Shown: one piece after another, positions 1-15,279 of the stretch
Layout of the letters: every line of letters starts with the position of its first letter
How positions within the stretch are numbered: position 1 is the stretch's first letter
From: Phycisphaerae bacterium
Lineage (GTDB): Bacteria > Planctomycetota > Phycisphaerae > UBA1845
DNA: 40,398 bases
Direction of reading: 5' to 3'
Assembly: GCA_029260075.1 (NCBI GenBank)
Contig: JAJDDY010000079.1
Span: forward strand, 1-40,398
Program-made: the position numbers and the translations under genes
The notes under the pieces: model-generated
Database searches by the model: none
What the model saw: only the letters and a program-made list of their open reading frames with translations
What the model was told of the DNA's origin: nothing

Positions 1-127
1 CAGCAAACTGGAAGGGGTCAACAACAAGATCAAAGTCATCAAACGCATCGCCTACGGCTTTCACGATCTCGACTACTTCGCCCTCAAAGTCAAACAGGCC
101 CTACCGGGGCGTACTTCCAACAACTAA
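1..127 (+). CDS. ISL3-family transposase, C-terminal fragment cut by window edge
   Basis: The frame starting at base 2 is open from the window edge to a TAA at 125-127 and gives 41 residues. It begins SKLEGVNNKIKVIKRIAYGF, which matches the end of ISL3-type DDE transposases, where a conserved E-G-x-N-N-K-I-K motif (with the last catalytic Glu) is followed by K-R-x-A-Y-G-F/Y. The family catalyses transposition of ISL3 elements. The first part of the gene lies outside the window, so whether it is intact is unknown. I could not find a clear terminal inverted repeat between the stop and the next gene at 226. Family assignment is confident although only the tail is visible. Confidence 0.8.
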   Translation, partial: SKLEGVNNKIKVIKRIAYGFHDLDYFALKVKQALPGRTSNN

Positions 128-225
128 TTTGGAGGAGAACCAACAAAGAAAGGACGCCGAAGCCTGTCGGAATCGGCGCCCACACGCAAACGCACTCGCT
201 GTGCAACACGTCTGATCGAAGAAGG

Positions 226-1935
226 TCAGGGCAGGAATCGAAGTACCTGGTACTGGCCGTCCCCGTATGTGTTGTGTCCGGGTGGGATCTCGCCGCGACC
301 GCAGTTGTCGAACACCGCGATCCCGTATTCGTACTCTGTAGACACTCCCAAATCAAACTGTACGTCATCTGAGTTGCCGTTCACCAGTTCGCGCCGAAAC
401 TCGTGGACCCAAGTACCGTTGCTCCAGGTAGCCGCGTGCAGCACATCGCTGCGGCTTCCTTCCGGTTGGCGGAGGATCCGCTCTGGGACTACGGCGTTCA
501 TCGCTGCGTAATCCGCCCAAGAGGCGGCGACGGCAGCCGCGTCATAGCCTGTTTCTGCGGGATCGGCGACGATCGTCTCGCCGTCGTCAATCTCCTGCTG
601 CGTTAAGACCATGGCGTCCGCCCAGTCCACCGGGTCGGTTTCAATCTGCGTGGGTGCGGACTTGTCGCCGTTGCGGTTATGGGAGTAGGCACTGCCTCCG
701 TCGTCCCCACGCCGCCCTGAGTCTTCTGTGTCGTATCCGTCGGCGAAATCTTGATACCAGACAAGCCGTTTGTCATCGAGTACCCCGCTGAAGGTGACCG
801 ATCCTGCGCTAACCTCATACTCTTCGCCCTCAGTTTCGATCCTCAGCGGGGAGTTGATGGTTGCGCTATTAAGGGCCATACCGCGTGCAGCCTTACTGTG
901 CCAGATGTCCCCTACGGAGTTGGCTAGATCGGTGAACTCGGACGAACCCGGGACATTGCCGTGGCACTTGATTGCGCAGCCGTTGCGATCCCGGAATTGC
1001 GGTATCGACACGTTCCAGAGAAACGCCAGTCGATCTTCCGATTGTTTGTCGTTTTCGGTTGTCGCGGTTGGATGCCGCCACGCGTCACCGTCGAGAATCC
1101 AAGCACCGGACCGGGTCATGCTCAACGTGGCGTCAGCGTGTTCAGCTCGAATGTAGAGGTACGTGTCCGAGTACAATGCCTGAAGCTTGATCCGCGACGT
1201 CGCTGTATACATCGTTGGAGTTAGGGCAATCGTGTGTTCGATCGCGTTCTTCCAGACCGGGTCGTCGCCCTTGCCGTTGATGTCGAAGTCACCGGAGATT
1301 TTGACTGCACTCAGGTAGGGATCGTAGTCCAAGTCGCGCCCGCCGAACGCGTTGTCTACCCAATCCGTGATCGTGGCGACTTCGTCGGATGTTAGGTATT
1401 TGGCCATGAATCCGCCCGGTTGGATCCAGCTACGAAGTGTGCCCCATCGTGCCGCGTCGATGATGGCCTCGTCAGTATCCAGGGCAGGCCGACCGGCGCC
1501 GTTGATCTGGTGTCCACCGTCGCGATGGCAGGCGATACAGTCGTCCGCCGCGTTCGCTCGGAGGACCAACTGGTCATCGTCATCGCGGAGGTAGAAGTGC
1601 GTTTGCTCCGGCGTAGTGTGACAGGCCGTGCATCCCGTCATGCCGTTGTCGTGCGCGAGCGCGCCCGTGTTGCCATACGAAACATGGCACGACCCGCACT
1701 GATCCACGTCCCGCGTGCCGGTGTGATCGGAAGGCAAAGTGATGTGGCAACGAGCGCAACTGTCCTCGATGATGGCTTTCACTGCCGGCGAAACGATCGA
1801 CGTGTCCCCGGGCGGGGCGTCGTCAGGGGGAGCGACGGACGAACAGCCGGTGAGGAACATGAGCGATGCACCCACAAGTGGGAATAACAGGGCAAGACCG
1901 CCCTTTGCTGCGAGATTCGTCTTGAAAGTGTTCAT
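226..1935 (-). CDS. Multiheme c-type cytochrome lipoprotein with ethylbenzene-dehydrogenase-like domain
   Basis: This 569-residue protein is probably an exported electron carrier held in a membrane by lipid. A hydrophobic signal ends in the lipobox LTGC, with the acylated Cys at residue 31. Four CXXCH heme-attachment motifs follow near residues 60-64, 80-84, 102-106 and 133-137. A fifth possible site, C-A-I-K-C-H near 320-325, has the CX3CH spacing. From about residue 205 the protein resembles the heme-binding domain of ethylbenzene-dehydrogenase-related proteins: it starts with 'V.ISGDFDINGKGDDPVW' and continues as a beta-rich domain. The start is supported by GGGAG about 8 nt upstream. It lies downstream of the OprB-like porin on the same strand, 224 bp away, so co-transcription is possible but not shown. 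Substrate and redox partners are unknown. Confidence 0.8.
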   Translation of the reverse strand: MNTFKTNLAAKGGLALLFPLVGASLMFLTGCSSVAPPDDAPPGDTSIVSPAVKAIIEDSCARCHITLPSDHTGTRDVDQCGSCHVSYGNTGALAHDNGMTGCTACHTTPEQTHFYLRDDDDQLVLRANAADDCIACHRDGGHQINGAGRPALDTDEAIIDAARWGTLRSWIQPGGFMAKYLTSDEVATITDWVDNAFGGRDLDYDPYLSAVKISGDFDINGKGDDPVWKNAIEHTIALTPTMYTATSRIKLQALYSDTYLYIRAEHADATLSMTRSGAWILDGDAWRHPTATTENDKQSEDRLAFLWNVSIPQFRDRNGCAIKCHGNVPGSSEFTDLANSVGDIWHSKAARGMALNSATINSPLRIETEGEEYEVSAGSVTFSGVLDDKRLVWYQDFADGYDTEDSGRRGDDGGSAYSHNRNGDKSAPTQIETDPVDWADAMVLTQQEIDDGETIVADPAETGYDAAAVAASWADYAAMNAVVPERILRQPEGSRSDVLHAATWSNGTWVHEFRRELVNGNSDDVQFDLGVSTEYEYGIAVFDNCGRGEIPPGHNTYGDGQYQVLRFLP

Positions 1936-2159
1936 GGCGTGGTCTCCCGAGAAATGTGCGTGAACCGCACCCCCCGCGGCGCCGCGCCCGGGCAGGCGGG
2001 CCTACTCTACCCTGCTCTTGCGACGGGGTAGCACCGCAAAAACTCATAGGTCGTTTACGAGGGAAACCTGCAAGAATCATACCGCAACGAGCACTCCAAC
2101 TGCGTAATCCATGTACCTTGGCGGGAATCTCGTTCGTGCATGGCTCGACCCATACGCCG

Positions 2160-3476
2160 CTAGAACGACATGCGTAAACGGACGCCCGCTACGATCGCAT
2201 GGCTGATGGCGCCATCAGCGCCAGGGTTGTCGATGTACTGTATGTCGGGCGTGACTACAAGCTGATCGGATACATGAATCGCATAGTACGCCTCGTAGAC
2301 GGTTTCATTCTTGAAACGATCGTCGACGCGCTCGCGGTACAGGTGTGACGATCTCAGAAGCGAGAATCCAAACCCGAGTACGTCGACGTCGCGCGTCGGG
2401 AACAAGCCTTTGTACGAGAAGCCCGCCGACCAGAAACGTGACATCCGGTTGGTTTCCGGGCTGCGGTAGCCGAATCGAGCGAAAACGCCTAGACCTTGGT
2501 CGTCGTCCTCGCTTTCCCGAACGAGCATTTGATCTAGGCTGACATACACCCCGTAGTCGCCAGCGCGTGTTCGTCGTTCGGTTTCATTCCTGCGAAAGAT
2601 CTTTCTCGGCCCGGGGTCATAGAAGAACCCGAGGCGGTAGTTGCCGGGCAAGTCACCCGCATTGCTCGGCAGCTCAACCTGAAACCCGTTCTCAAGGTAT
2701 GCCGTATACCAATCCTCTTCGTGAAACGCCCCCGAAATGCCGCCCTTGTATGGAACAGACTGGCCGTCGGCGATACCGAGAATCAGCGAGTACCAGCTTG
2801 TTGGTTTGAGCATCAGGCTAACGCCCATGCCGATCCGAAGCGGAATGAGCGGGTTGTTGTCGAGCGACTGGTGCATGAACTGTTTGTCCTCGCTGTTGGC
2901 ATAGGCGTTGCGATCAACGATGGTTTGGTAGTCCAGATAGCCGAGCGTGAGCGAGGCGCGATGCTCGGGGAAGTGCTGCCGATACCAGAGTTGCGCGACA
3001 TGCCCGCCGATCGATCCGTCGGCGTCGTCGTTAACCTGAAACAGACCTCCTGTGCGCGCGTTGACGCCAGCCCCCCAGTTTGACTGGAGATGAAGAAGAA
3101 CTTCTGCGTTGGGAACCACGCCCAGCTTGCCCAGATCGAACGTAATCAGCGTATCGACCGACGCAGCGTTTCGCCCGCCTCCTGAGCCGTCGGCACCGCC
3201 CGTCAGCACGGCCTGATACTGATCGTTCAAAAAGACGTTGACCCTGACGCCTCGTTCCTCCAAGGCCGTGCGGCGCTGGCGCAAGTCTCGAGTCAACGCC
3301 GGCGCGTCGAGCGCTAGTAGACGCAAAGTCGATGGCCGGTCAGAGTCCTCATCATCGGACACGACGGCCTGCGAGCTAGGTTCGGAGGCTTCATCGACCG
3401 GCTCATCCGCAACTGCTCGGAACGAAACTGAAAGGACAACAGCCAAACCAGTGAAATAAATTGCGTGTGCGGACAT
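2160..3476 (-). CDS. OprB-type outer-membrane porin
   Basis: The 438-residue product looks like a carbohydrate-selective porin of the OprB family, which forms beta-barrels for passive solute uptake in outer membranes. A signal peptide (start MSAHAIYFTG, likely cut after FRAVA) is followed by an acidic, Ser-rich linker and then by barrel-like sequence. Visible family features are 'FDLGKL', 'LQSNWGAG', a 'GYLDYQTIVDRN.YAN' segment, 'GFFYDPG', 'ARFGYRSPETNRMS.FWSAGFSYKG' and a last residue of Phe, typical for barrel assembly. A longer reading from 3602 exists, but the ATG at 3476 is preferred because GGAGG lies just upstream and a signal peptide begins there. The gene is divergent from the cytochrome c'-like gene. 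The transported compound cannot be told from sequence. Confidence 0.82.
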   Translation of the reverse strand: MSAHAIYFTGLAVVLSVSFRAVADEPVDEASEPSSQAVVSDDEDSDRPSTLRLLALDAPALTRDLRQRRTALEERGVRVNVFLNDQYQAVLTGGADGSGGGRNAASVDTLITFDLGKLGVVPNAEVLLHLQSNWGAGVNARTGGLFQVNDDADGSIGGHVAQLWYRQHFPEHRASLTLGYLDYQTIVDRNAYANSEDKQFMHQSLDNNPLIPLRIGMGVSLMLKPTSWYSLILGIADGQSVPYKGGISGAFHEEDWYTAYLENGFQVELPSNAGDLPGNYRLGFFYDPGPRKIFRRNETERRTRAGDYGVYVSLDQMLVRESEDDDQGLGVFARFGYRSPETNRMSRFWSAGFSYKGLFPTRDVDVLGFGFSLLRSSHLYRERVDDRFKNETVYEAYYAIHVSDQLVVTPDIQYIDNPGADGAISHAIVAGVRLRMSF

Positions 3477-3480
3477 ACTG

Positions 3481-3485
3481 CCTCC
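3481..3485 (-). promoter_or_regulatory. Shine-Dalgarno site of the OprB-like gene
   Basis: Read on the minus strand this is GGAGG, followed by CAGT and the ATG at 3476. It decides the start: the 42 codons upstream in the same frame have no signal-peptide character. Confidence 0.7.
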
Positions 3486-3724
3486 ACGAGGCGACCGCGC
3501 AACACGTCCCGCCCCTGTACACCCAGCAAAGCGAGTACCACGGATTGATCCATAAAGGTCAATCGGCGAAACTGCACGGATGCTTGTTGGCGTTCGTGCC
3601 ACGCCGACTTGCGGCGGCGCACCACTTGCAGGAAGATCCGATTGGGTGGGATCGTTTCAAGGCGTTCGTGTTGCCCGCACGCGCGCCGACGAACCGGCCC
3701 AAGAAATTTGAAGGAGCCGTGACG

Positions 3725-4252
3725 ATGCTCAAGCACCCAGTCCGGGCTGCGACTGCGGGCGCGTTGATTCTGATGACGACTTCGTGTGCGCGACCGACCG
3801 CCTTACCAGAACGCCAACGCACGGGAATCGGCGAGTTTGAAACGCGGCATTGGGTCCACAGCAAGCGCCTCGGGGCTGTCATGGCTGTCTTGGAGCGCGA
3901 CACGCTTTCTACGTGGCCACAGGAGGTCGAAGACGAGTACGCCGACACGGATGCGGAGAAAGCAGATCAGGCGTTCGATGAGGCCCGCACGTTGGCAGGG
4001 CGGCTCGCAAGTTCAACTCCAAGTATTACGGCGGCGGTGAAAGCAATACGAATGTCCGAGGGTGACCGTCGCGCGTTCGTGGCTCAGGTTGACACTCTCC
4101 GCGATCAGGCCCAACGGCTCAACGACGCCGCCGAAGCAGGCAACATTGATCGCATGCGCCTCGATCTGAAATCCATCATGGCGACCTGCCGTTCGTGCCA
4201 CGAACGCTTCCGCGAATTCACGAAGCCCTTGGAACCACGAAGCAAATCCTGA
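3725..4252 (+). CDS. Cytochrome c'-like (class II) monoheme lipoprotein
   Basis: The 175-residue product has a signal sequence with a lipobox-like MTTSC near residue 18. The body is mostly alpha-helical, and a single C-terminal heme site C-R-S-C-H lies in the context 'IMATCRSCHERFREF'. A lone CXXCH close to the C-terminus followed by basic and aromatic residues is the mark of class II cytochromes, the four-helix cytochrome c' group, which bind small gases or carry electrons in the periplasm. The ATG at 3725 is chosen because AAGGAG lies about 9 nt upstream and the signal peptide begins there; the frame is open further upstream to 3461 but overlaps the start of the divergent porin. Together with the multiheme cytochrome it suggests a periplasmic redox function for this cluster. 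The ligand or partner is unknown. Confidence 0.78.
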   Translation: MLKHPVRAATAGALILMTTSCARPTALPERQRTGIGEFETRHWVHSKRLGAVMAVLERDTLSTWPQEVEDEYADTDAEKADQAFDEARTLAGRLASSTPSITAAVKAIRMSEGDRRAFVAQVDTLRDQAQRLNDAAEAGNIDRMRLDLKSIMATCRSCHERFREFTKPLEPRSKS

Positions 4253-4265
4253 TGAACAGCCCTCT

Positions 4266-4877
4266 GTGCGTGGCGTTCGCATTTGCGAGCACACGCCGCT
4301 AGGAGACGGGCGTGACGCGAGTTGGCTCGAGGAAGCGTTGCTTTCATTCATGCACGAAGGGATGTCCCGCAACGACTACTTCCATCGGTTGACGAAGACT
4401 GTTCTTGCCATAACGCCGGGCGCGAACGCGATTTTCATGGGAAGAACAACTGAACTCATCCTGCCTCGCGACGTCGGTCTGCGAATAAGGATCGTGGCTC
4501 CGCTCAAGCAACGCATTCGGCGGTTCGCCGAAACGCGGGAAGTGACTGTGGAGCTAGCGGGTCGCGATATGGAAGCAATCGATCTCGATCGCGAGAAATT
4601 CGCGGAGAAGCACTTTGGGAGGATGGCTCACGACCCTTGCCGTTTCGACCTGATCGTGAACCGGCAGCATCATGAGCCGAGCGATGTCGTGTCTCTGATC
4701 TTATGCGCATTGAAGCTTCGCGGAATTGCCGTTTGTCCGCGTCGATTTCCTCCAACCTCCGCATCGTCTGGGGTTTGTTGTCGGCGATCATGCGTCAGCC
4801 TCCCCGTTACCCATCTGTTTCTCGAAGGACTGCCGTATCAGTCCCATGACGTACGGCAGATTGTCAACCGAACTTAG
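4266..4877 (+). pseudogene. Cytidylate-kinase-like gene lacking its P-loop end
   Basis: The GTG-started frame encodes 203 residues. Residues about 50-153 match the second half of the cytidylate-kinase-like family: 'GANAIFMGRTTELILP', then 'LRIRIVAPLKQRIRRFAE', 'D.DREKFAEKHFG' and 'DPCRFDLIVN'. Complete members begin with a phosphate-binding P-loop of the type ISRxxGSGG some 80-100 residues before this point. Here the upstream sequence is the stop region of the cytochrome c'-like gene, so the nucleotide-binding end is missing. After about residue 153 the reading loses family character and runs about 90 bp into the convergent DUF262 gene, suggesting loss of the natural stop as well. The fragment is probably inactive. 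A frameshift with an alternative start was looked for and not found. Confidence 0.65.
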
Positions 4878-6893
4878 ACCAACCTCAACATCTCCGTTGC
4901 CCCAGCGTCCCTTGCCGGTTACGTCCCTACACGCACTGCGAGGATCGTGGACCTCGTGGAATAGTATGTTGAGTAAGAGGCGAAGCTGAGCCTTCTGTGG
5001 AACCACGTCCACAAAATTCGTCTCGGCCCTGTACGCGACGTAGCGCTTCAAGAACTCCTCGTCCACGCACGGGTCAATTGCCAAAACCTCTTTGCGGAAG
5101 CTTTCAAAGAGTGCACGCATAGGGCTCCCCTCGGCGAGCCAAGGGTGGTCTGTTATAGAATAGGCTCTTTGCTTTGTGCTCGCAGGGCGATAGCTGTCGA
5201 GGACCTCGGATTGGAGGGCAGGCGCAACCCAGACCTTCGTCGCTAACTCTGCGAGGCGTTCCCCACGGGTTTTGATGGCGCCTTCGTTCCAGGATTCCAG
5301 AGATCCCAAACCCTCATTGACACGAAGCGGGCTTTCTTTGAATCCGCCTTTCATATCGCGTTTTTCAGGAAAGGGTCGATCGCTGTACTCGGAGTTGTAT
5401 CCGGTCAACGTAAGGTTGCCGAGCGTGTGCAGCCTAGCCTCTTGCACTTGCTTCCATTCAGAACCGAGTGCCTCCCGCCAGGGCTGGGAGAGGTGGTCAT
5501 TTTGTGGAAGGATGTGCTCGATGGTGTATTCGTCCACTGGCACATGTTCTTTACGATCATGGTTTTCCAACCTACGGAGCCAGTAACTTCGGTTGCGAAA
5601 GTTGTAGAGATCTCGCACGCCCAGCTCCCGACGAAACTCATCGTCGCCCGGAAAACGTCGGTAGGATGGCAGCAACAGGAAATGCGCCTGAATACTCTCG
5701 AAGTACTGCTCCTTCTTGATCGCGCGACCCAGATTGGCGAAAGTCTTATTGAGCGAGTTCGTCGGGATGTTGCAGACCGCACGTCGAAAAACATAGCTCT
5801 CAACTTGTCGCACGATACGTTCAAAATCGTCTACCGAAAGCAAGTCGGTTGCATAGTCGCGATAAAGCCCAAGTAGGAAAGGGTAGATAACGTCTACTTT
5901 CAACTCTCGTAGATCCCGGAACGCACCGGCAAGTCGTGGGAAGGATTCCTGACCGAGCGCCATCGCGCAGTAGTATCCGGTGAATGCGTGGATGTCGGCC
6001 ACCAGAGCATCGACGCCTGCCGCGGCGATCTCCGGCGAGCGAGCGTAAGCCTTGAAGGCTTCGTATACCTTGTTGACGTTGGGTATGTCGCCAGTCATCA
6101 CCGTTAGGTAGTGACGCATAAAGCTGTCGAACTGTTTGCCGTAGACCTCTTGACCGAACGCCACCTCCATGGGCCGCCAATGGTCGGTGTAGAGTTGCGT
6201 CTGGTGCTTAGGTTCGAGGCCCATCAAGATGAAGTTGCGAATCAGGTCAGCCTGTGTCAGCTCAAGGCCCGTCGAGTTCATGCTTTCAAAGATGAGCTGC
6301 GGGTTGTCTTGATCGCGACTCAACGAAATATCCACAATCATCAACTTCATCAGGCCTCTACAAAGTGGTTCAAGGTCGGCGCCGAGTTTCTTCACCTCTC
6401 GGTCAAAGAAGTCAAAGTTCTCCTTGAGGCGGAGCGAATGCTCAGCGGGAAGATCTTTCTGGGCCACGATGGCTAGCAGGGTCTGTTTGTCAGTCTGAGT
6501 GAGGAGCAGCTTGTAGCCACGTTCGTCATCTTCAAGCGGATTCAGAAGGTAGTAGTTACGGAGCTTCTTGGGGGTGAATCCGTCGATAGGTTCGGAGTCA
6601 CCTAGGTGTCTTGCGATCGCCTCAATGATAAGCATCAGGGTCGTGAGACGTTGCTGGCCGTCGATCACTAAGAGTGATGACTGGCTGGAGACCTGGTAGA
6701 GGCTATCCTCTATGTACACGATGGAACCCACGAAGTGCGCAGAAACGGCTTCATTGCTTCCGACACGTAGAATATCATCCCAGAGCTGACGACACTCAGG
6801 ATCGGTCCATGAGTACGTCCGCTGGTAAATCGGAATGATGAACTGTGGCGACTTCTTGAGGAAATCGAGCAGTCTTGCTTCGGTCGCTTTCAT
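4788..6893 (-). CDS. GmrSD-like DUF262-DUF1524 nuclease with C-terminal DUF5655-like domain
   Basis: The 701-residue protein has the layout of single-chain GmrSD (type IV, modification-dependent) restriction enzymes. The N-terminal DUF262 (ParB-like) domain shows FIIPIYQRTYSW at residues 18-29, IDGQQRLTT at 77-85, and a later FESMNSTG followed by LTQADLIRN near 202-220. In GmrS this part binds and hydrolyses nucleotide. The DUF1524 His-Me finger nuclease is marked by EHILPQN at 459-465 and HTLGNLTL at 489-496, with a following N-x-x-Y-S-D. A DUF5655-like tail (about 600-695) ends the protein. GmrSD enzymes cut phage DNA carrying glucosylated or otherwise modified bases. All core motifs appear intact. 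The start overlaps the stop of the HTH gene by 4 bp (ATGA), so the two are almost certainly translated together. Target modification is unknown. Confidence 0.88.
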   Translation of the reverse strand: MKATEARLLDFLKKSPQFIIPIYQRTYSWTDPECRQLWDDILRVGSNEAVSAHFVGSIVYIEDSLYQVSSQSSLLVIDGQQRLTTLMLIIEAIARHLGDSEPIDGFTPKKLRNYYLLNPLEDDERGYKLLLTQTDKQTLLAIVAQKDLPAEHSLRLKENFDFFDREVKKLGADLEPLCRGLMKLMIVDISLSRDQDNPQLIFESMNSTGLELTQADLIRNFILMGLEPKHQTQLYTDHWRPMEVAFGQEVYGKQFDSFMRHYLTVMTGDIPNVNKVYEAFKAYARSPEIAAAGVDALVADIHAFTGYYCAMALGQESFPRLAGAFRDLRELKVDVIYPFLLGLYRDYATDLLSVDDFERIVRQVESYVFRRAVCNIPTNSLNKTFANLGRAIKKEQYFESIQAHFLLLPSYRRFPGDDEFRRELGVRDLYNFRNRSYWLRRLENHDRKEHVPVDEYTIEHILPQNDHLSQPWREALGSEWKQVQEARLHTLGNLTLTGYNSEYSDRPFPEKRDMKGGFKESPLRVNEGLGSLESWNEGAIKTRGERLAELATKVWVAPALQSEVLDSYRPASTKQRAYSITDHPWLAEGSPMRALFESFRKEVLAIDPCVDEEFLKRYVAYRAETNFVDVVPQKAQLRLLLNILFHEVHDPRSACRDVTGKGRWGNGDVEVGLSSVDNLPYVMGLIRQSFEKQMGNGEADA

Positions 6894-7465
6894 CGACTTG
6901 CCTCCGACCTTCCAATAATCTCTGTGAGAACCACCTCTGACTCCTGTTCCAGTGCCAAAATGTCGACGCGGACTGCTTCCAAGCTCCGCATTGGTTGGAG
7001 TTTGTATAAATGGCGAGTGAATCTGATCTCATACCCGGTCTTGACTCTGTCCGAAACATACCAGGCGTCGGAAGCGTGGGGCAGAACCTCGCGTTCGATG
7101 AACGCCTCGATGCCACCTTCTTCCAAGAGTGGCATCTGTTCGGTGTCGCGCAACTCGCAGTCTGGTTCGTATTCAAGAACGAGGCTTCTGCCTCGCGCGG
7201 GCGAAGCGTAGGGCCCACGGATTGGATCGACTTCAACTTGGCCGGGCTTGTGGATCTTCTTCACTTCCGGTTCCGCGTTCTCGTCCGCCTTGCTCTTGAA
7301 TCGCATGCACTCATCCGGATTCTGGCGTCGAAATCGCCGATCACCTCGCTTGCCGACGCGCACGCACGCCAATTGTCCATTCCGAGTCCACCGTCGGAGG
7401 GTGATTTTCGCCACTCCCAAATACGCGGCAGCCTCGTCGAGCGTCGTGAGCCCATCGTCAACCAT
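6890..7465 (-). CDS. Helix-turn-helix protein fused to the C-terminal tail of a type I methyltransferase (HsdM)
   Basis: The 191-residue protein has two parts. Residues 1-56 form an excisionase/MerR-like winged helix: LTTLDEAAAYLGVAKITLRR followed by W-x-x-N-G-x-L and a basic G-K-R-x-x-R-R-F strand. Residues about 95-187 match the extreme C-terminus of N-6 adenine methyltransferases of type I systems: LRDTEQMPL, then FIEREVLPHASDAW, GYEIRFTRHLYK and RSLEAVRVDILALEQESE. No methyltransferase fold (no NPPY or SAM motif) is present. In HsdM the tail packs against the specificity subunit. The ATG at 7465 is preferred over 7516 because the HTH starts here; no strong Shine-Dalgarno is visible. It is the first gene of an operon with the GmrSD-like nuclease. 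A role as regulator or as adaptor is inference. Confidence 0.82.
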   Translation of the reverse strand: MVDDGLTTLDEAAAYLGVAKITLRRWTRNGQLACVRVGKRGDRRFRRQNPDECMRFKSKADENAEPEVKKIHKPGQVEVDPIRGPYASPARGRSLVLEYEPDCELRDTEQMPLLEEGGIEAFIEREVLPHASDAWYVSDRVKTGYEIRFTRHLYKLQPMRSLEAVRVDILALEQESEVVLTEIIGRSEASR

Positions 7466-8310
7466 GCCCGGAGTGTATCTCACTTGATCATTGACGCAAA
7501 GAATAACGATCAGCAATGGGGAGCAAATCTGTTACTGTCGACTCGCACCGGGGTTTGGCACGTACCGAGTTACCCCGCGGGTCGGGTGGACTCGTCGGAA
7601 TAACCGCGGGCGATGAACTATCGGTACGAGAACTAGACCTCTATGGATTCGTGGTCGACCTACTGTCTCATCTTTTCCATTTTCTACGTGGTCGCCCGCG
7701 ACTTGCCACTGTGTTTCGTGCCGCCTGCAGACACACGTCAGGCGCCGTTTGTCCAAACGTTCGCGGCACCAATTCCCAATAAAGCGATTCGGTCAGGTGA
7801 CCATCTCACGAGAGAAACCACGCCTCGCATGTCACGCGACACGCCATCCCATCGGCTTCAGTCCCAGAGCGTCGGCGCGGGCGCACTGTGTCCAGTCGCG
7901 CGTCCAGCTCACGATCCTCCGGTCCACGGGCAACGTTGTCGTCGAGATGCGGGATCGCGCTGTTTCGCCTGGCCAAGCTGTTGAACCCACCCGACGTCGA
8001 AGACTTGCCCTGATTGGCCGAACGTGTCGGGGATCGCCAGATGTCAGCGGAGTTCCTGAGCGCGCGGAACGCCATCCTCTCGACGTACGGCTGGCGCGGA
8101 CCAAGCGCACCTGCGCTACCGTACCACGCGCCTAGGCGTTCCCTTCCAAGTGATCTAGCGCGCATATCAGTTCAACCTGCGATCGTGCCCGTCGATCGTA
8201 CACTCGTGAAACCAGGGTACTACCGGCGTTGATCCTGGTAAATATCAATCCGAGCGCCGGCGCTGCGCTCCGTCCCCATGGTACGGGTTTCTACTACCGC
8301 GAGCGCGGCG
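7466..8310. other. Gene-poor spacer, probably decayed sequence
   Basis: About 845 bp without a supportable gene. Several short overlapping frames exist on both strands, all rich in Arg and with frequent stops, and none shows a family motif I recognise. The region should hold the promoter of the minus-strand HTH/nuclease pair, but no clear -35/-10 pair stands out. Confidence 0.5.
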
Positions 8311-8604
8311 TCACTCGCCTACTTGCAAGAACACAAATCGGCGCATCGTGCCGGTTCGCACACCCTGGCAAACACCTTCCTTGAGATTGTACTCTTTGAG
8401 CACGTCTCGGAATCCGCCAACGTCCTCCACAGAACGATCCTGGACGCTGACAATGACATCCCTGACCTGAATCCCCGCCCGGCGCGCGGGGCTCAGGGGC
8501 TCGACGTCGATGACCACCACGCCTTTGACGTCATCGTCGTACCCAAGCTGCTGCATAATATCCGGCGTCAGCGTGCGCAGCGTCGGCGCGTTCGGAAAGA
8601 TATG
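8311..8604 (-). pseudogene. HtrA/Deg-type serine protease, C-terminal PDZ fragment
   Basis: The minus-strand frame is open from 8604 (TAG just upstream, 8605-8607) to a TGA at 8311-8313. It encodes the end of a periplasmic HtrA/DegP-like protease: 'LRTLTPDIMQQLGY', then VKGVVVIDVEPLSPARRAGI, 'VRDVIVSVQDRSV' and a C-terminal 'RFVFLQ'. These are the carboxylate-binding loop, hydrophobic core and end strand of a PDZ domain of this family. The protease domain with its catalytic triad is absent: the similarity stops where the leader of the plus-strand kinase begins. The fragment is most likely a truncated remnant. It lies antisense to the in-frame extension of the kinase gene, which argues against using the far upstream start for that gene. 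Confidence 0.72.
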
Positions 8605-8619
8605 CTACGATGGCCAATG

Positions 8620-11343
8620 ATGAATCAGTGTCCCTCATGTTCAATCGACGTACAGATCGAGAGCAGGTTTTGTCCGTCTTGCGGAGCGGCGATGCAACCG
8701 CCCGCGGTTGAGCCGACGGTGACTTCGCCGCCGAGGCCTGCACACCAAGCCGCACAACTGGATGCGACCGGATCATCATCGGACTCGATCGACCAGGCCC
8801 GGTTTACTCCCGGAACAATACTGGCCGAGCGGTACCGTATCGTGGGGTTACTCGGCAAGGGCGGTATGGGCGAGGTCTATCGGGCGGACGATCTGAAGCT
8901 ACGGCAATCTGTGGCCCTCAAGTTCCTTCCGGCCGCGCTTTCAAAAGATGCTCAAAAGCTCGAACGATTCCATCATGAGGTGCGGGTCGCTCGACAGGTA
9001 TCCCATCCCAACGTCTGTCGCGTGTACGATATCGCCGACGCCGATGGGCAGCAGTTCATCTCAATGGAATACATCGACGGCGAAGATCTCGCGTCCGTTC
9101 TTCGCCGAATGGGCAAGCCATCCGCAGACAAGGCCGTTCAAATCGCTCGGCAGCTCTGTGCTGGTCTAGCCGCAGCCCACGACAAGGGTGTGCTCCATCG
9201 CGATCTCAAACCCCACAACGTCATGATCGACGGTCTCGGCGCGGTCCGTGTCACCGACTTTGGTCTGGCCGGGTTTGTCGAAGAATTCTCCGGGCGTGAT
9301 GTGGGGGCGGGAACGCCTGCGTACATGGCTCCGGAGCAGTTGGCCGGTCGAGAGGTCTCGGTCAAGAGCGATATCTACTCGCTCGGGGTGGTGCTCTGCG
9401 AACTGTTCACCGGCAAACGGTTGTTCGACGGCGCCAGCCGCGAGCAACTTCAACGCTCAGGAACTTCCGTGCCGACAAGCTTGTCGACTCTAGCGGACGA
9501 CCTCGATCCCGTCGTCGAGCGGGTCATCCTTCGATGCCTCGAACCCGACCCCACCGCGCGCCCGTCCTCGGCCCTTGCCGTGGCGGCAGCTCTGCCCGGC
9601 GGCGATCCCCTTGCCGCGGCGCTCGCAGCGGGCGAAACGCCCTCTCCAGAGATGGTCGCCAACGCGGGCGAAGTCGGTGGAATGCGGCCCGCGTTGGCCA
9701 TCGCGTGTCTTGTCGCCATCCTCGGCGGCACGTTGGCCTTGGTGCCACTTGGCCGAATGCAGTCTTTGGTACGATTGGTTCCCATGCCCAAGCCGCCCGC
9801 CGCGCTCGCCGATCGGGCGGCGGAAAGCCTCATCAAGCTGGGGCACACCAGTCCGGTTGTGGACACAGCCTTCGGGTTCGGGGCTGATTGGTCGCGTGTG
9901 AGTCACGTCGCGGACACCGATAAGTCCCTCGATCGCTGGAACAAACTCGCCGAATGTCGCCCCTCGCCGGTGCATTTCTGGTACCGCACCAGTCCGCGCC
10001 CGCTCATTCCGCCACCCTCCGACGACCGTGTCAGCACACGGCAGCCTCCTTTGGAAGTTTCCGGAATGGCGACGGTGTTGCTCGATCCCCAAGGGCGATT
10101 GACCGGGCTGGCCGTCGATCCGCCGCAACGGGAGGAGGAGATCGCGTCGCCCGTAGCCGCGACGCCCACGGATTGGTCGGTCCTTCTTACGGAAGCACAG
10201 ATCGATCCGAACCAGTTCACGCCCACCGAACCGCGCTGGACGCCGGGCAACTATTGCGACGAACGCGCCGCCTGGGAGGGCCATTTCCCCAATCAGCCCG
10301 ACGTTCCGATCCGAATCGAAGCCGGTGCCTATCGTGGGAATCCGACGTTCTTATCGATCATCGGGCCCTGGACCAAGCCGTGGCGAATGCAGGAGTGGCC
10401 GGAAACGCTGGGGAAAAGAATCGGCGACGTGATCTTCATAGGCATACTTATGACCCTTGTTCTCAGCGGTGCATTGCTAGCGCGCCGCAACCTCAAGCTA
10501 CGCCGCTCCGACCGAGCCGGCGCCGACCGCCTGGCACTGTTTTGCTTCTTCTTGATCATCGTAAGTTGGCTTCTGCTCATCGACCACGTCTCGGATTTCT
10601 GGGGTGAATTCGATCGCCTTCGCGTCTTGATGGGAAAGGCATTGGTCGCGGTCGTTATCATGTGGCTGTGGTACATCGCCCTCGAGCCGTACGTCCGCCG
10701 CCGCTGGCCCCACGCTTTGATTTCGTGGAGCCGCCTGTTGGCCGGGCGCGTGCGGGATCCACTTGTCGGGCGTGACATTCTTATGGGCGGCATCTTCGCC
10801 GTCGGGGTCACTTTCTTTCAAGCCATCCAGAGTTGGGTCCGGCTCGCTCTGGGGCAGCCGTTGCCACAACCGAGGTTTTGGAGTTGGGAGCTCCTTCCCG
10901 GCCCGAGATTTCAGATCGGCCAAATCCTCGATGGATCGTTCGTCTTCTTTGCCATGGTCTTCCTGTTCCTCCTTCTCGGACTTCGGCTGCTTCTCAGGAG
11001 AGACTGGCTAGCGTTTATGGTCTTCATTGTACTGATGCCCGTACTCAACTTCGTAGGCGCGCCTGCGGATGAAGCCCTGACCATGAAGCTTCTGAAGGTC
11101 GTGTTCGATTCGTTCCTTTTGGTTGCCATCGTGCTGGTGCTCGTGCGCTATGGCTTGCTCGCATTGGTCTTTTTTTGGTTCTTCGTGGTGGTGCTGGAGA
11201 TTCCTCCAATGTTCGGGCTTTCCGGGTGGCAGTCGGAGGCCTCGTGGACGGCGATTCTCTTCATCACTGCCTTAACCGTGTACGGGTTTCACACTGCGCT
11301 CGCGGGTCGCCCGCTCTTCCGCGACGAACTCTTGCAAGAGTAG
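8620..11343 (+). CDS. Zinc-ribbon Ser/Thr protein kinase with multi-pass membrane C-terminus
   Basis: With the start at 8620 the protein has 907 residues. A zinc ribbon uses C4, C7, C18 and C21. After a Pro/Ala linker comes a Hanks-type kinase domain (about 72-335): GKGGMGEV at 79-86, the ATP-anchoring K101, HRDLKPHN at 193-200, DFG at 213-215 and APEQ. All catalytic residues are present. A membrane helix near 354-376 leads to a soluble segment of about 230 residues, presumably extracytoplasmic. From about 604 to the end at least seven hydrophobic helices follow. The membrane part could be the sensor. Starts at 8602, 8617 and 8620 are all possible; upstream codons to 8278 are rejected because they are antisense to the HtrA fragment. 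No sigma-factor gene is directly adjacent. Confidence 0.85.
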   Translation: MNQCPSCSIDVQIESRFCPSCGAAMQPPAVEPTVTSPPRPAHQAAQLDATGSSSDSIDQARFTPGTILAERYRIVGLLGKGGMGEVYRADDLKLRQSVALKFLPAALSKDAQKLERFHHEVRVARQVSHPNVCRVYDIADADGQQFISMEYIDGEDLASVLRRMGKPSADKAVQIARQLCAGLAAAHDKGVLHRDLKPHNVMIDGLGAVRVTDFGLAGFVEEFSGRDVGAGTPAYMAPEQLAGREVSVKSDIYSLGVVLCELFTGKRLFDGASREQLQRSGTSVPTSLSTLADDLDPVVERVILRCLEPDPTARPSSALAVAAALPGGDPLAAALAAGETPSPEMVANAGEVGGMRPALAIACLVAILGGTLALVPLGRMQSLVRLVPMPKPPAALADRAAESLIKLGHTSPVVDTAFGFGADWSRVSHVADTDKSLDRWNKLAECRPSPVHFWYRTSPRPLIPPPSDDRVSTRQPPLEVSGMATVLLDPQGRLTGLAVDPPQREEEIASPVAATPTDWSVLLTEAQIDPNQFTPTEPRWTPGNYCDERAAWEGHFPNQPDVPIRIEAGAYRGNPTFLSIIGPWTKPWRMQEWPETLGKRIGDVIFIGILMTLVLSGALLARRNLKLRRSDRAGADRLALFCFFLIIVSWLLLIDHVSDFWGEFDRLRVLMGKALVAVVIMWLWYIALEPYVRRRWPHALISWSRLLAGRVRDPLVGRDILMGGIFAVGVTFFQAIQSWVRLALGQPLPQPRFWSWELLPGPRFQIGQILDGSFVFFAMVFLFLLLGLRLLLRRDWLAFMVFIVLMPVLNFVGAPADEALTMKLLKVVFDSFLLVAIVLVLVRYGLLALVFFWFFVVVLEIPPMFGLSGWQSEASWTAILFITALTVYGFHTALAGRPLFRDELLQE

Positions 11344-12137
11344 GGTACTATGCGCATCGAGTCGCGGTTTGATGCGAGCAACATCGACTCACGTGCAACG
11401 AGCTTGCCACTGGCAGCCGGCGATCATGGCGATGGTCGCAGTCGCGGGTTGGCTGTTTATGGCCACTGGGCGGCGACGGCTGGAAAGAGCTTCGCCCGCA
11501 GAGTTAGATGACCCTACCGTTGGTAGGTGGCATTGGTAGGGAATGGTGGATGCCGCGCCTATCGCGGCAATCGGGGTCGAGAACTTGACCGAGCGACCGA
11601 GCCACGGCCTGCTGCATCAGCGTGGCTTCCTGTCGTGAGTACCGTTCGTCGTAGTCTCGGTCGCGCATGGACTTCCAGTTCACGGCGAGTCTTGTGTGGT
11701 CGGCTAGATTCTGCGTCGCGCCTTCTCGCGGGACGGGGGTCCACTTCACCGGTTGCAGCTACAAACAATCGATCAAGATCACCCGGGGCCTTCCGGGCCG
11801 GAGACGGAAATATAACGCCGATTTGGGAGCTCAAGAACACTCGCGTTTGACAATCTCGGCGTATCCTTCGTTGACAATTATCGGAACGAGCGCAACATTT
11901 GTACGTACCTCGATCGCCCGGATCGCCCAGCGCAATCATACCTAGTCTGCAATGTGGATTCGTTGCGCCAATGGGTCGACTTACCGGACAACAATAAAGA
12001 CCTTGAGCGAACCAGTCTACGGCTGGCCCGAGCGAGTAGCCACATCCGTCGGGGATTGTTTCGACGTCTTGCGGACGCTATGATCTGGCGTAGTGTGGCG
12101 TGGGGATGGGGGAGTGAGCAGATTGCTCTAGACTAAT
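11344..12137. other. Spacer of about 790 bp with no recognised gene
   Basis: Frames of 80-126 codons occur on both strands around 11500-11940. They overlap one another, are Arg-rich and carry no motif I recognise. It probably contains the promoter of the downstream sigma-factor gene and perhaps decayed coding sequence. Confidence 0.5.
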
Positions 12138-12677
12138 TTGCCAACCAAGCGTGACCATATTCGGAACGACGCGAACGACCGACTTTTTGATCGCTTCTAT
12201 GCTGATCTTCGCCGGTTAGCTGGTTACCATCTCGGAAAGGAACGTCCGGACCACACCCTTCAACCAACGGCGTTGGTCCATGAAGCGTTTCTCCGAATCG
12301 CCGCCCAGTCGCCAGCGCTGCACGACGAAAAAGCCCGTTTCCTGTCGGTTGCATCCGAGATGATCCGACGGATCCTGATCGATCACGCGCGCCACAAGGG
12401 GACACAAAAACGCGGGAAAGGATTCCGACGACTTCAACTCGATGAGGTCAGCATCCCGGAGTTCGGCGAGGAAGCTGTGGACGTGCTCGAGCTCGACGCC
12501 ATCCTCGCTGAGCTGCGCGGTCTTAGCCCCCGGCAAGCGAGCGTCGTGGAACTCCGATTCTTCGCAGGGCTTTCGCTGGAGGAAACCGCTGACGCCCTGG
12601 GCGTGTCGATTGGCACGGTGAAGGGGGATTGGCGAATATCTCGGGCATGGCTTCGCGTGCGGCTTCGGAACGCATAG
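12138..12677 (+). CDS. ECF-type RNA polymerase sigma factor
   Basis: The 179-residue product is a sigma-70 family ECF factor of the planctomycete/acidobacterial kind linked to Ser/Thr kinases. Region 2 includes 'LFDRFYADLRRLAGYHL', 'TLQPTALVHEAFLRIA' and 'FLSVASEMIRRILIDHARH', all typical of that group. Region 4 carries 'LSPRQASVVELRFFAGLSLE' followed by ETADALGVS and 'TVKGDWRISRAWL', the -35-binding helix-turn-helix. It directs RNA polymerase to specific promoters, and activity is probably modulated through the kinase encoded next, 196 bp downstream on the same strand. The start appears to be TTG at 12138: an in-frame stop lies at 12129-12131 and no ATG occurs in frame before region 2. No good Shine-Dalgarno is visible, so the exact start is uncertain. 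Confidence 0.87.
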   Translation: MPTKRDHIRNDANDRLFDRFYADLRRLAGYHLGKERPDHTLQPTALVHEAFLRIAAQSPALHDEKARFLSVASEMIRRILIDHARHKGTQKRGKGFRRLQLDEVSIPEFGEEAVDVLELDAILAELRGLSPRQASVVELRFFAGLSLEETADALGVSIGTVKGDWRISRAWLRVRLRNA

Positions 12678-12873
12678 CCGGAGTTTTCGGACCATAGTTT
12701 GCTGAATTGTTGTCCCCTGAATACAAAAATCACGCGTATCTCGTTGAGCGCTTTGTTGTTGGTTGCGGTGAGCGACCAAAGCTAAGGGTCCTGGTCTGCA
12801 GAGACGCTGGACTGCACGCAAGTTCCGGGGCGGGCCAGTATTCGGATTGGGTGGACGACTCGTCAGGTCGAAC

Positions 12874-15279
12874 ATGACAACGTCTGAACGACATACTAGG
12901 GCTGGCGGATTGTTTCTCGCAGCTTGCGACTTGGGCGCAAATGAGCAGATCTCATTTCTCGACCGAAGTTGCGGCGACGATCTGGCCTTGCGTTCGACGG
13001 TGGACGCGCTCCTGCAAGAAGATTCTCGTGTTGAGTTGTTCCTCGGGGCGGGCGACAGCCACCCGTCCTGGCTGCGGGACTTGACCTCGCCCTCTTGTGA
13101 CGACTCGTCCGCTTGCGCAGACAATGGCTTACGCCCAGCGCTCGCCCCGCAGGACACGCGTGACCGTAAGGCAGCGTGGCCAACGGTCCCCGGCTACGAG
13201 ATTCTCGATGTTCTCGGACATGGTGGCATGGGGATCGTGTACCGAGCACGGCAAGAACAGCTAAGCCGAGAGGTAGCACTCAAGGTCCTGCCGAATGTGC
13301 TTGGTGCCGCCCATCCCTCCATTGTTCCTCGCTTCCGCCGCGAGGCCGCCGCCGCTGCGAAACTCCGGCACAAGAATATCGTCCCGATCCATGACTTCGG
13401 CGAAGCCGATGAATGCTACTACTATGCTATGGAACTCGTTGACGGTTGGCCACTGAACGTTGTCATGCGCCGGCTAATTGCGGCCCGATTGGGCGCCTCT
13501 CGTTTGCCATCCGTCCAGGACAAGACCGGCTCGGATTCTGGGGCCAAGCACGATGCGGTGACATCCGGCGCATCCCCGGTTCTCGGCGAGTGGCTCAGTG
13601 GAAACGAAGCCCCGTTTAGCCGCGCCTACTTCAACCGCATCGCCCGCTGGATCAGCGAAGTGGCGGACGCCCTCCAAGTCGCCCACGATCTCGGCATTGT
13701 ACACCGCGACGTCAAGCCGGGAAACTTGATCCTCGCTCGCCAAGGGCGAGTCATGATTACGGACTTCGGTCTGGCACTCACTGAACACGATGACACAATC
13801 ACGAAGACTGGCGCCATCCTTGGTACGTTGAGGTATCTGTCCCCGGAACAGGCTCTCGGCGGCCGCGTGCCGGTCGATCAGAGAGCCGACATCTACTCGC
13901 TCGGCGCGACGCTCTATGAGTTGATGACCCTGAGCCCTGTCTTTGAAGGAGAGGATGGAAACCAACTCCTCGCTGCCGTGATCGGGACTGAACCACTACC
14001 CCCGTCCAAGCTGAACCCGGGCGTACCGCTAGAACTTGAAACCGTGTGCATGCACGCCATGGCGAAGCTTCCAGAGGATCGCTATCAGTCAGCAGGCGAT
14101 CTCGCTGCCGATCTTCGCTCGTTCGCCGAAGGTCGACCGGTTTCTGTGCGCCCCGCAGGCATCGCACGGCGTGCCATATCGTCGCTACGTCGCCACAAGT
14201 TTGGCATCCTCATCTCCGGCGCGTTGCTGCTTGTCGCCTGCACCGGTGGTCTCCTCATGCGAAGCAACCGGCAGGCCCGCGTCGACCGAGAGGTCGGAGA
14301 TCTGGTCAGTCGTGCGCTGATACTCCAACAGGATAGGCGTTGGGCTGACGCAGCCGATGTGTACCAAGACGCGCTCGAACTCGACCCCGATGGTGTCCGC
14401 ACGCTGGGGAATCTAGCGATTGTGCTCAAGGAACAATTCAATGAACAGCCCGAGCCCGATTTCTCTTTGCTGAACGACGCGGCGTCTTACTGCGACGCGG
14501 CCTTGACATTTGCACCCGAACATGCGGGCTTGTGGAACGTGAAGGGGGTAATTCTGAAGAAGCTTGGCCGCTTCGAAGACGCTCGCCGCGCGTATGAGGA
14601 AGCGTTGGCGATTCCATTAGGATCGCCCGAGATGGTTATCGCCGCTCACAACAACCTTGCAGATGTTCTTTGGTTGGAAGGCGATCGAAATGAGGCAGAA
14701 CAGCACACCCGCAAAGCTGCGCAGGTCGCAGACGAAACCAATACGCCCGCTTGGTTCGCTTGGCAGGATCTCGCTGCAGTCGAACTTGCCTACGACAACC
14801 CTTCGGCAGCGGACCTCATCCTGCGCGGGTTCGATTCGACGAATGAGCCGAATTGGCGACTGCACATCACTAGGGCACGGGTCCATCTCGAGATTGAGGG
14901 GATTCGCAACATCGCGCAGGCCGTCCGCGATGTACATGCGGCGAAGGAGCTAGGCCCGGCGGACCCGCGGATCGAACGGACCGCCGCGCTTGCGATGCTG
15001 CGCAGCGGCGATGCAGATGCATGCCTGAATTACGCACAAGAGGCCCTAGCGCTGGGCGACATCCCGGCGTTTCCATATCTGCTTATGGCCATCGCGGAAG
15101 CGCATCGTGGCAACGCAGAGGGCGCGGGCGAGCATCTGCTCGCCGCGAAAGAAGCCTGGCCGGAAGAACTCATCAACGCAGGGTTTTCGGTGTCAACACA
15201 GAGAGGAATGCTATGGGTGGATACGGCCGAGCAATTGGAGCGGCTATTGGGAGAAGCAGAGGAAATCATTGATGAGTGA
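12874..15279 (+). CDS. Membrane Ser/Thr protein kinase with C-terminal TPR region
   Basis: The 801-residue protein starts with a short helical region common to planctomycete kinases ('RSCGDDLALRSTVDALLQED'). The Hanks-type kinase domain (about 108-430) has GHGGMG at 115-120, K137 in VALK, HRDVKPGN at 277-284 and DFGL from 297. Between HRD and the hinge lies an extra stretch of about 55 residues (roughly 197-250) that is polar and low in complexity. A membrane helix near 442-464 is followed by some 330 residues of TPR-like helix pairs, for instance 'RWADAADVYQDALELDPDGV' and 'GLWNVKGVILKKLGRFEDAR', which would lie outside the cytoplasm and bind partners. The ATG at 12874 is preferred over the TTG at 12847 because AGG lies about 9 nt upstream. 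The last codons overlap the next gene by 8 bp. Confidence 0.87.
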   Translation: MTTSERHTRAGGLFLAACDLGANEQISFLDRSCGDDLALRSTVDALLQEDSRVELFLGAGDSHPSWLRDLTSPSCDDSSACADNGLRPALAPQDTRDRKAAWPTVPGYEILDVLGHGGMGIVYRARQEQLSREVALKVLPNVLGAAHPSIVPRFRREAAAAAKLRHKNIVPIHDFGEADECYYYAMELVDGWPLNVVMRRLIAARLGASRLPSVQDKTGSDSGAKHDAVTSGASPVLGEWLSGNEAPFSRAYFNRIARWISEVADALQVAHDLGIVHRDVKPGNLILARQGRVMITDFGLALTEHDDTITKTGAILGTLRYLSPEQALGGRVPVDQRADIYSLGATLYELMTLSPVFEGEDGNQLLAAVIGTEPLPPSKLNPGVPLELETVCMHAMAKLPEDRYQSAGDLAADLRSFAEGRPVSVRPAGIARRAISSLRRHKFGILISGALLLVACTGGLLMRSNRQARVDREVGDLVSRALILQQDRRWADAADVYQDALELDPDGVRTLGNLAIVLKEQFNEQPEPDFSLLNDAASYCDAALTFAPEHAGLWNVKGVILKKLGRFEDARRAYEEALAIPLGSPEMVIAAHNNLADVLWLEGDRNEAEQHTRKAAQVADETNTPAWFAWQDLAAVELAYDNPSAADLILRGFDSTNEPNWRLHITRARVHLEIEGIRNIAQAVRDVHAAKELGPADPRIERTAALAMLRSGDADACLNYAQEALALGDIPAFPYLLMAIAEAHRGNAEGAGEHLLAAKEAWPEELINAGFSVSTQRGMLWVDTAEQLERLLGEAEEIIDE

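What the first reader, a model, noticed from the sequence alone, without database searches (positions are those of the whole stretch)
6890..7465. HsdM C-terminal tail fused to a helix-turn-helix without any methyltransferase domain
Residues about 95-187 match the tail found at the very end of type I N-6 adenine methyltransferases (DTE.MPL, EREVLPHASDAW, GYEIRFTRH), yet the catalytic domain is absent and an excisionase/MerR-like HTH takes its place. In HsdM this tail packs against the specificity subunit. A free-standing version could dock on a resident type I system, compete with it, or have become a ligand-responsive part of a regulator.
Basis: partly seen in the sequence, partly recalled or inferred. 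Interest (0 to 1): 0.62.

Follow-up and report, generated by a model that had tools for sequence, protein, structure and literature searches.

The report
HTH leader fused to HsdM stump
A small bacterial gene looks like a deletion scar: the DNA-binding leader protein of a DNA restriction operon joined to the last part of a lost methyltransferase, directly in front of a still-intact GmrSD-type restriction gene; this is a neat case of gene decay and re-use rather than a new kind of system.

Summary
Window 6890-7465 (minus strand, 191 aa) encodes an HTH_17/MerR-like domain (residues 8-48) joined directly to the last ~135 residues of a type I HsdM; no methyltransferase body, hsdS or hsdR was found beside it. 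It overlaps by 4 bp an intact GmrSD/RloF-like gene (4788-6893).

Relatives explain it. In five loci a complete HsdM sits directly before the same GmrSD gene, and a separate HTH leader gene opens an R-M operon in a same-family genome. In five further loci an intact GmrSD gene sits behind an hsdM stump without a catalytic body, so collapse of hsdM beside a surviving GmrSD gene recurs. I found no second HTH-tail fusion.

The tail looks relaxed (5 of 32 otherwise invariant columns broken; 0-2 in 26 other rows) while the GmrSD protein is normal. My reading: a deletion fused the operon's HTH leader to the hsdM stump; the ORF now serves as leader and translational run-up for the GmrSD gene. The parts are shown; the deletion event and the function are inferred. 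Docking on a resident type I enzyme is unlikely: the genome's one other type I HsdM lacks this tail.

The parts
6890..7465 (-). HTH-HsdM-tail fusion ORF, 191 aa (P0001)
   Evidence: homology
7304..7465 (-). HTH part, residues 1-54 (HTH_17 core residues 8-48), most likely derived from a stand-alone leader gene
   Evidence: 74% identical over residues 1-54 to a separate leader gene in a same-family genome (78% over 51 aa); dN 0.151, dS 1.055
7292..7306 (-). junction of the two parts, residues 54-58, no linker
   Evidence: HTH homology to the G327 leader ends at residue 54; HsdM homology begins at 54-58 in the best matches
6893..7294 (-). HsdM C-terminal part, residues 58-191
   Evidence: PADLOC MTase_I 553-660/661, E 1e-25
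6899..6982 (-). predicted C-terminal helix, residues 162-189; probable counterpart of the HsdS-binding helix of HsdM
   Evidence: only well-predicted stretch of a poor model, pLDDT blocks 81 and 80; role of the helix from PMC3047542, PMC9613975 (passages)
7472..7490 (-). conserved upstream element TGATCAAGTGAGATACACT, possible promoter/operator of the leader
   Evidence: 17 of 19 bases shared with the same-family leader gene; the sigma-70 scan found no promoter in 4500-8300
6901..6905 (-). GGAGG Shine-Dalgarno-like site of the GmrSD gene inside the last codons of the fusion ORF; ATGA stop/start overlap at 6890-6893
   Evidence: read from sequence; the ATGA overlap is shared with L042, L093, L094, L110, L118 (GTGA in L077)
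4788..6893 (-). intact GmrSD/RloF-like protein, 701 aa (DUF262, DUF1524, DUF5655; P0002)
   Evidence: 80 relatives kept, best-segment identity 54-75%; DGQQR motif kept

Best explanation
The gene arose by a deletion inside a type I restriction-modification operon of the form [HTH leader][hsdM][gmrSD][hsdS...]. The deletion ran from the 3' end of the HTH leader gene to about 135 codons before the end of hsdM and happened to keep the frame; hsdS and hsdR were also lost. What remains is a two-gene unit. The HTH most likely still binds the conserved element just upstream and sets expression of the unit. The HsdM stump is mainly a translated run-up: its last codons carry the ribosome-binding site and the ATGA overlap that couple translation to the GmrSD gene, which is intact and most likely restricts modified phage DNA. 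Shown: the two-part composition, the parent arrangements in other genomes, other hsdM stumps in front of intact GmrSD genes, the overlap and site, the intact GmrSD, faster evolution of the stump. Inferred: the deletion event itself, HTH autoregulation, translational coupling, phage defence.
For: Parent order with the same overlap: complete HsdM directly before the same GmrSD gene in L042, L077, L093, L110 and in L118, where hsdS follows. Recurrent collapse: among the 80 relatives, five more have an open GmrSD frame of 701-702 codons behind an hsdM stump without catalytic body: L100 (HsdM residues 1-126 joined to 673-771, out of frame), L053, L065 and L094 (tail end only), L073 (N-terminal residues 9-56 only; its contig begins 453 bp upstream). 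Separate HTH leader: G327 (L151) opens an operon of helicase, 385-aa protein, HsdM and HsdS with an 84-aa HTH protein 78% identical over 51 aa; L116 has a 74-aa HTH_17 ORF 20 bp before hsdM. 17 of 19 bases upstream are shared with G327. Tail relaxed: 5 of 32 otherwise invariant columns broken versus 0-2 (of 27-29) in 26 other rows; terminal branch 0.58 versus 0.20-0.34 in five intact loci, while its GmrSD branch is 0.28 versus 0.12-0.33. GmrSD normal: 1 of 118 otherwise invariant columns broken. HTH: dN 0.151, dS 1.055 against G327.
Against: The exact order HTH + HsdM + this GmrSD was not seen together in one locus; it is assembled from L116, L118 and G327, and in G327 a helicase and another gene lie between HTH and hsdM. 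The stump's frame is open: in a neutral simulation with 70 substitutions this has probability 0.13 without indels, 0.015 or 0.002 with 5% or 10% indels per substitution, so something may keep the frame. 27 of the 32 otherwise invariant columns are still intact, and tail dN (0.30-0.40 to the five intact loci) is only a little above that among intact tails (0.23-0.33), with dS high or undefined. The row is the most distant in the alignment, which by itself raises its count; pair ratios overlap (ours 1.35-2.11; intact pairs 0.97-2.31, the highest being L118-L110). The trees are unrooted, so part of our tail branch may lie before the root. The sigma-70 scan found no promoter. A misassembly at the junction cannot be excluded, since no second copy was found.
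Confidence: 0.72

Rival explanations
1. Adapted regulator: the HTH protein kept the HsdM tail as a sensing or dimerising part, for example sensing free HsdS or contacting the GmrSD protein, and so controls the GmrSD gene.
For: Open frame against neutral expectation with indels; 27 of 32 otherwise invariant columns kept; HTH conserved against G327; the last helix is the best-predicted stretch.
Against: Five invariant columns broken, three of them (I165V, G178V, L179V) in the last helix; tail branch about twice its peers'; no second fusion in the genomes and records searched.
Confidence: 0.15
2. Decoy: the tail docks on the HsdS of a resident or incoming type I enzyme and competes with HsdM.
For: The C-terminal helix of HsdM is needed for HsdS binding in TTE-HsdM and forms a four-helix bundle with HsdS in PacII (PMC3047542, PMC9613975, passages read).
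Against: The only HsdS found in the genome belongs to a system whose HsdM lacks this tail; helix columns broken. In TTE-HsdM an N-terminal helix is also an inter-subunit site and is missing here.
Confidence: 0.06
3. Dead relic: the whole ORF, HTH included, is without function and only the GmrSD gene matters. This shares the deletion origin with the best explanation and differs only in the role left to the ORF.
For: Relaxed tail; related relics exist, such as the frameshifted L135 and the out-of-frame L100 and L053 stumps.
Against: HTH and its upstream element look conserved, though most of that conservation may predate the fusion; open frame.
Confidence: 0.2
4. Assembly artefact joining an HTH gene to an hsdM-gmrSD end.
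For: A single example in a draft genome of 93 contigs.
Against: Joined in frame where both homologies end, in the right orientation and order for the parent operon; natural hsdM stumps before the same GmrSD gene exist in other assemblies.
Confidence: 0.03

Closest known systems
GmrSD-family genes embedded in type I R-M loci (RloF of Campylobacter jejuni; TgvAB of Vibrio cholerae; HEC-06)
   Same: GmrSD_N and GmrSD_C domains, DGQQR motif, relatives often beside hsdM/hsdS/hsdR (PMC11411939 and PMC4619093, passages read).
   Different: Here the type I genes are gone except an HsdM stump fused to an HTH; a C-terminal DUF5655 domain is present. TgvAB needs two proteins, HEC-06 acts alone (PMC11411939); which holds here is unknown.
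Type I methyltransferase subunit HsdM (PADLOC PDLC03029 type)
   Same: Last ~135 residues align at 48-63% to HsdM C-termini.
   Different: HsdM_N and N6_Mtase domains absent.
Small HTH_17 leader proteins of R-M operons (MAD1-like)
   Same: HTH_17 match; G327 leader 78% identical over 51 aa; PADLOC mad1 E 4e-6 for ours and 1e-10 for G327.
   Different: Ours lacks the end of such a leader and carries the HsdM stump; it scores far below the NCBIfam MAD1 cut-off (20 versus 80 bits).

Membership tests
Type I HsdM methyltransferase | N6_Mtase catalytic domain | tested here: not met
   no Pfam match in P0001; no remnant in window 1-12000
Type I HsdM methyltransferase | HsdM N-terminal domain | tested here: not met
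Type I HsdM methyltransferase | C-terminal tail | tested here: met
   PADLOC MTase_I 553-660/661; alignment
Type I R-M system | adjacent hsdS and hsdR | tested here: not met
   tblastn of four HsdS and two HsdR-type proteins from relatives against window 1-12500 gives nothing better than E 0.45; HsdS are diverse, so a very distant remnant could be missed
GmrSD (DUF262/DUF1524) type IV family, for P0002 | GmrSD_N and GmrSD_C domains | tested here: met
   E 1.4e-35 and 1.7e-22
GmrSD (DUF262/DUF1524) type IV family, for P0002 | DGQQR nucleotide-binding motif | tested here: met
   present in P0002 and in 77 of 77 aligned sequences
GmrSD (DUF262/DUF1524) type IV family, for P0002 | cleavage of modified DNA | not testable with these tools
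   needs an experiment
MAD1 / HTH_17 leader protein | HTH_17 domain over cut-off | tested here: met
   35.7 bits, cut-off 27
MAD1 / HTH_17 leader protein | NCBIfam MAD1 equivalog cut-off | tested here: not met
   20 bits, cut-off 80

The most novel reading that the evidence does not exclude
A deletion turned a methyltransferase stump into the working C-terminal half of a new transcription factor, which senses type I specificity subunits (or the GmrSD enzyme itself) through the old HsdM-HsdS interface and switches a type IV restriction gene when the type I system is lost or enters the cell.
Probability: 0.07. Interest if true: 0.65.

Novelty: new variant of a known kind. Interest (0 to 1): 0.32.

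Why it matters
It shows, with intact parent arrangements and other stumps at hand, how a type I operon can collapse to its embedded GmrSD gene while the leader, its upstream element and the translational overlap stay in place. It also warns that tail-only HsdM hits near defence genes can be stumps rather than new regulators. If the tail still bound HsdS it would matter more.

Tried and rejected
Structure prediction of P0001 (7 rows) and of the complete HsdM of L042 (4 rows) gave poor models, mean pLDDT 46.4 and 46.7, so no fold search was run; only the last helix of P0001 is usable. A sequence search of solved structures with P0001 gave one weak HTH hit (E 0.058) and nothing for the tail; the complete HsdM L042 matches ten PDB sequences, whose best stretches end by its residue 483 of 778.

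Searches for a second HTH-tail fusion found none. Genome sets overlap and thresholds differ: 294 phylum genomes, 45 with a match at E 1e-6; 100 relatives, 15 at 1e-6; 397 of the class, 29 at 1e-10; 14 of another class, 3 at 1e-15; these counts include the own genome except. In these only the window's own row covers both residues 1-39 and the tail. Plasmids: 757 of 72,556 records match, 0 cover 80% of the query (40 rows seen). Phages: 3 of 50,697. Viral contigs: 5 stretches, 1 locus. Of 80 relatives of the GmrSD gene kept out of 121 found, none shows the fusion, though some contigs end just upstream.

Remnants of hsdS, hsdR or the G327 helicase beside the window gene: nothing better than E 0.14. 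Flank synteny: OprB and cytochrome c' are neighbours in two same-family genomes (L190, L191), but the kinase side was not found there, so the right border of the unit was not defined. Alignments A1 and A2, with two HTH rows, misplaced those rows and were not used for folding. Paper searches for a truncated, orphan or remnant HsdM, for an excisionase-type HTH with HsdM and for the MADS system listed no description of such a fusion; only listings with titles and abstract starts were seen for these.

The confidences overlap because the relic rival shares the deletion origin.

Full report
What is there. The finding lies on the minus strand. The ORF 6890-7465 starts with ATG at 7465 and encodes 191 aa. 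Residues 8-48 are an HTH_17 domain. Residues 50-184 match the last part of PADLOC's type I methyltransferase model, positions 553-660 of 661, E 1e-25. Genome searches align residues from about 54-58 to about 186-189 to the ends of HsdM frames at 48-63% identity, for instance G137, G192, G019 and G314. The HTH homology to a leader gene ends at residue 54 and HsdM homology begins at 54-58, so the two parts abut without a linker. No catalytic domain is present in the protein, and no other HsdM piece was found in window 1-12000.

The neighbour. The stop codon of the fusion overlaps the start of a 701-aa gene at 4788-6893 (ATGA). It carries GmrSD_N, GmrSD_C and DUF5655 and matches the PADLOC Orf5 model PDLC02693 at E 9e-194 and HEC-06 at 7e-64. 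Its G+C is 53.9% against 58-61% in four other genes of the window, a hint of acquisition. Eighty relatives were kept from 121 found in named genomes, best-segment identity 54-75%, over many phyla and including one contig titled as an archaeon. In the 44 of 80 loci with an ORF of at least 90 aa ending close upstream, 15 of those ORFs match Methylase_S, 6 HsdM_N and 5 N6_Mtase; in the 45 of 80 with such an ORF close downstream, 17 match HSDR_N. The other 36 and 35 loci were left out of those two counts, and the ORF choice was mechanical. GmrSD genes inside type I loci are known: RloF in Campylobacter and TgvAB in Vibrio cholerae (PMC4619093, PMC11411939; passages read).

The parent. In L042, L077, L093 and L110 an HsdM frame of 707-780 codons sits directly before this GmrSD gene with the same 4-bp overlap (GTGA in L077). 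In L118, from the same phylum, the order is HsdM, GmrSD (72% identical to ours), HsdS, each overlapping by 4 bp. The HTH also has a source. In G327, of the same family as the window's genome, an 84-aa HTH protein, 78% identical over 51 aa, opens an operon with a DEAD helicase, a 385-aa protein, HsdM, HsdS and a protein with a FokI-type cleavage domain. A 19-bp element just before the start codon is shared at 17 of 19 positions. In L116 a 74-aa HTH_17 ORF ends 20 bp before hsdM. Among 150 genomes searched with the HTH alone, only the own genome and G327 match at E 1e-7. The complete order HTH-HsdM-GmrSD in one locus was not seen; it is inferred from these pieces.

Other stumps. tblastn of three complete HsdM proteins against all 80 GmrSD loci shows that five carry an hsdM stump without a catalytic body beside an open GmrSD frame of 701-702 codons. 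L100 joins HsdM residues 1-126 (80% identical to L077) to residues 673-771 (79%), out of frame. L053, L065 and L094 keep only 29-78 residues of the very end of HsdM, with about 4 kb of upstream sequence at hand; in L053 these lie in two frames. L073 keeps only N-terminal residues 9-56, in two frames, and its contig begins 453 bp before the GmrSD gene. None of the five has the HTH. So loss of the hsdM body in front of a surviving GmrSD gene has happened more than once, and in four of these five, as in the window, the piece that touches the GmrSD gene is the end of hsdM.

Constraint. I aligned P0001 with 27 tails (stop-to-stop frames of at least 500 codons whose match starts near the tail start, chosen from the hits) and dropped one frameshifted row (L013). 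Leaving each row out in turn over residues 97-184, P0001 departs at 5 of 32 columns that are invariant in the others (F153L, P156L, I165V, G178V, L179V); the other 26 rows depart at 0-2 of 27-29. P0001 is also the most distant row, mean identity 0.63 against 0.68-0.76, which inflates its count. As an internal control I compared six loci that hold both genes: the terminal branch of our tail is 0.58, the others 0.20-0.34; for the GmrSD protein ours is 0.28, the others 0.12-0.33 (unrooted trees). The pairwise ratios are less clean: 1.35-2.11 with ours, 0.97-2.31 without. Tail dN is 0.30-0.40 for ours against 0.23-0.33 among intact tails, with dS high or undefined. The GmrSD protein breaks 1 of 118 otherwise invariant columns; 45 of 77 sequences break none and the worst breaks 9 (five of 81 loci were dropped by a length and start filter). 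The HTH against G327 gives dN 0.151, dS 1.055, which may be mostly history before the fusion. So the tail looks relaxed, though not lawless, and the GmrSD gene does not.

Why is the frame still open? In a neutral simulation with 70 substitutions (about 0.30 amino-acid change per site) the tail stays open with probability 0.13 if only substitutions occur, 0.015 or 0.002 with 5% or 10% indels per substitution. A simple reason for keeping the frame is at hand: the last codons of the stump carry GGAGG seven bases before the ATGA overlap, so translation through the stump can feed the GmrSD gene. This coupling is inferred.

How it most likely works. The HTH probably binds the upstream element; both genomes have a TACACT hexamer (6 or 8 bases before the ATG) and a TTG-starting hexamer 16 bases further up (read from the sequences), but the sigma-70 scan did not accept it as a promoter. 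That would fit a very short or absent leader controlled by its own product, as MerR-like proteins do (knowledge of the family, recalled). The stump is carried along. The GmrSD enzyme probably acts against modified phage DNA; some relatives act alone, TgvAB needs two proteins (PMC11411939, passages read).

The docking idea. HsdM binds HsdS through its C-terminal helix: of four C-terminal deletions of TTE-HsdM only the 10-residue one still co-purifies with HsdS (PMC3047542), and PacII shows a four-helix bundle (PMC9613975). The corresponding helix, residues 162-189, is predicted here but contains three of the five broken columns. The own genome holds one type I system that I could find, on contig C36, with an HTH leader (41% identical), HsdR, HsdS and a 497-aa HsdM whose end does not match this tail. 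A further N6_Mtase protein of 1090 aa on C8 has no HsdM_N match and no such tail. No partner for the tail is visible.

Decay elsewhere in the phylum.

Verdict. No second HTH-tail example was found in the searches listed.

Noticed in passing
L053, L065, L073, L094, L100 (just upstream of the GmrSD gene): hsdM stumps without catalytic body directly before open GmrSD frames in five named genome records: the GmrSD gene seems to outlive its hsdM repeatedly.
   Followed up: partly
L131 (G045:C3) 6144-6638: Stand-alone ~165-aa HsdM tail behind a transposase-like gene (rve domain), with an HsdR-type gene downstream; no methyltransferase body found in the 13 kb.
   Followed up: partly
L134 (G153:C1) 5006-6040: 344-aa HsdM lacking the first half of its N6_Mtase domain, with a 997-aa HsdR-type gene downstream.
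   Followed up: partly
L135 (G274:C261) 6015-6325: HsdM tail relic in two frames; its first piece has the highest identity to the window's tail found (71-74% over ~57 aa).
   Followed up: partly
L151 (G327:C2) 2503-13876: Operon: HTH leader, DEAD helicase (HamB/PDC-M23B-like), 385-aa unknown protein, HsdM, HsdS, FokI-type cleavage-domain protein, 776-aa protein with weak methylase matches; possibly an undescribed R-M variant.
   Followed up: no
L156 (own genome C36): Own type I system with HTH leader, HsdR, 83-aa protein, HsdS, 444-aa and 589-aa proteins, HsdM.
   Followed up: no
window 4788-6893: The GmrSD protein family is well conserved for a defence gene: 54-75% best-segment identity in 80 loci across many phyla, an archaeal MAG included.
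   Followed up: partly
window 18823-25950: 2375-aa protein with subtilase, PKD, fn3 and Ig-like domains.
   Followed up: no
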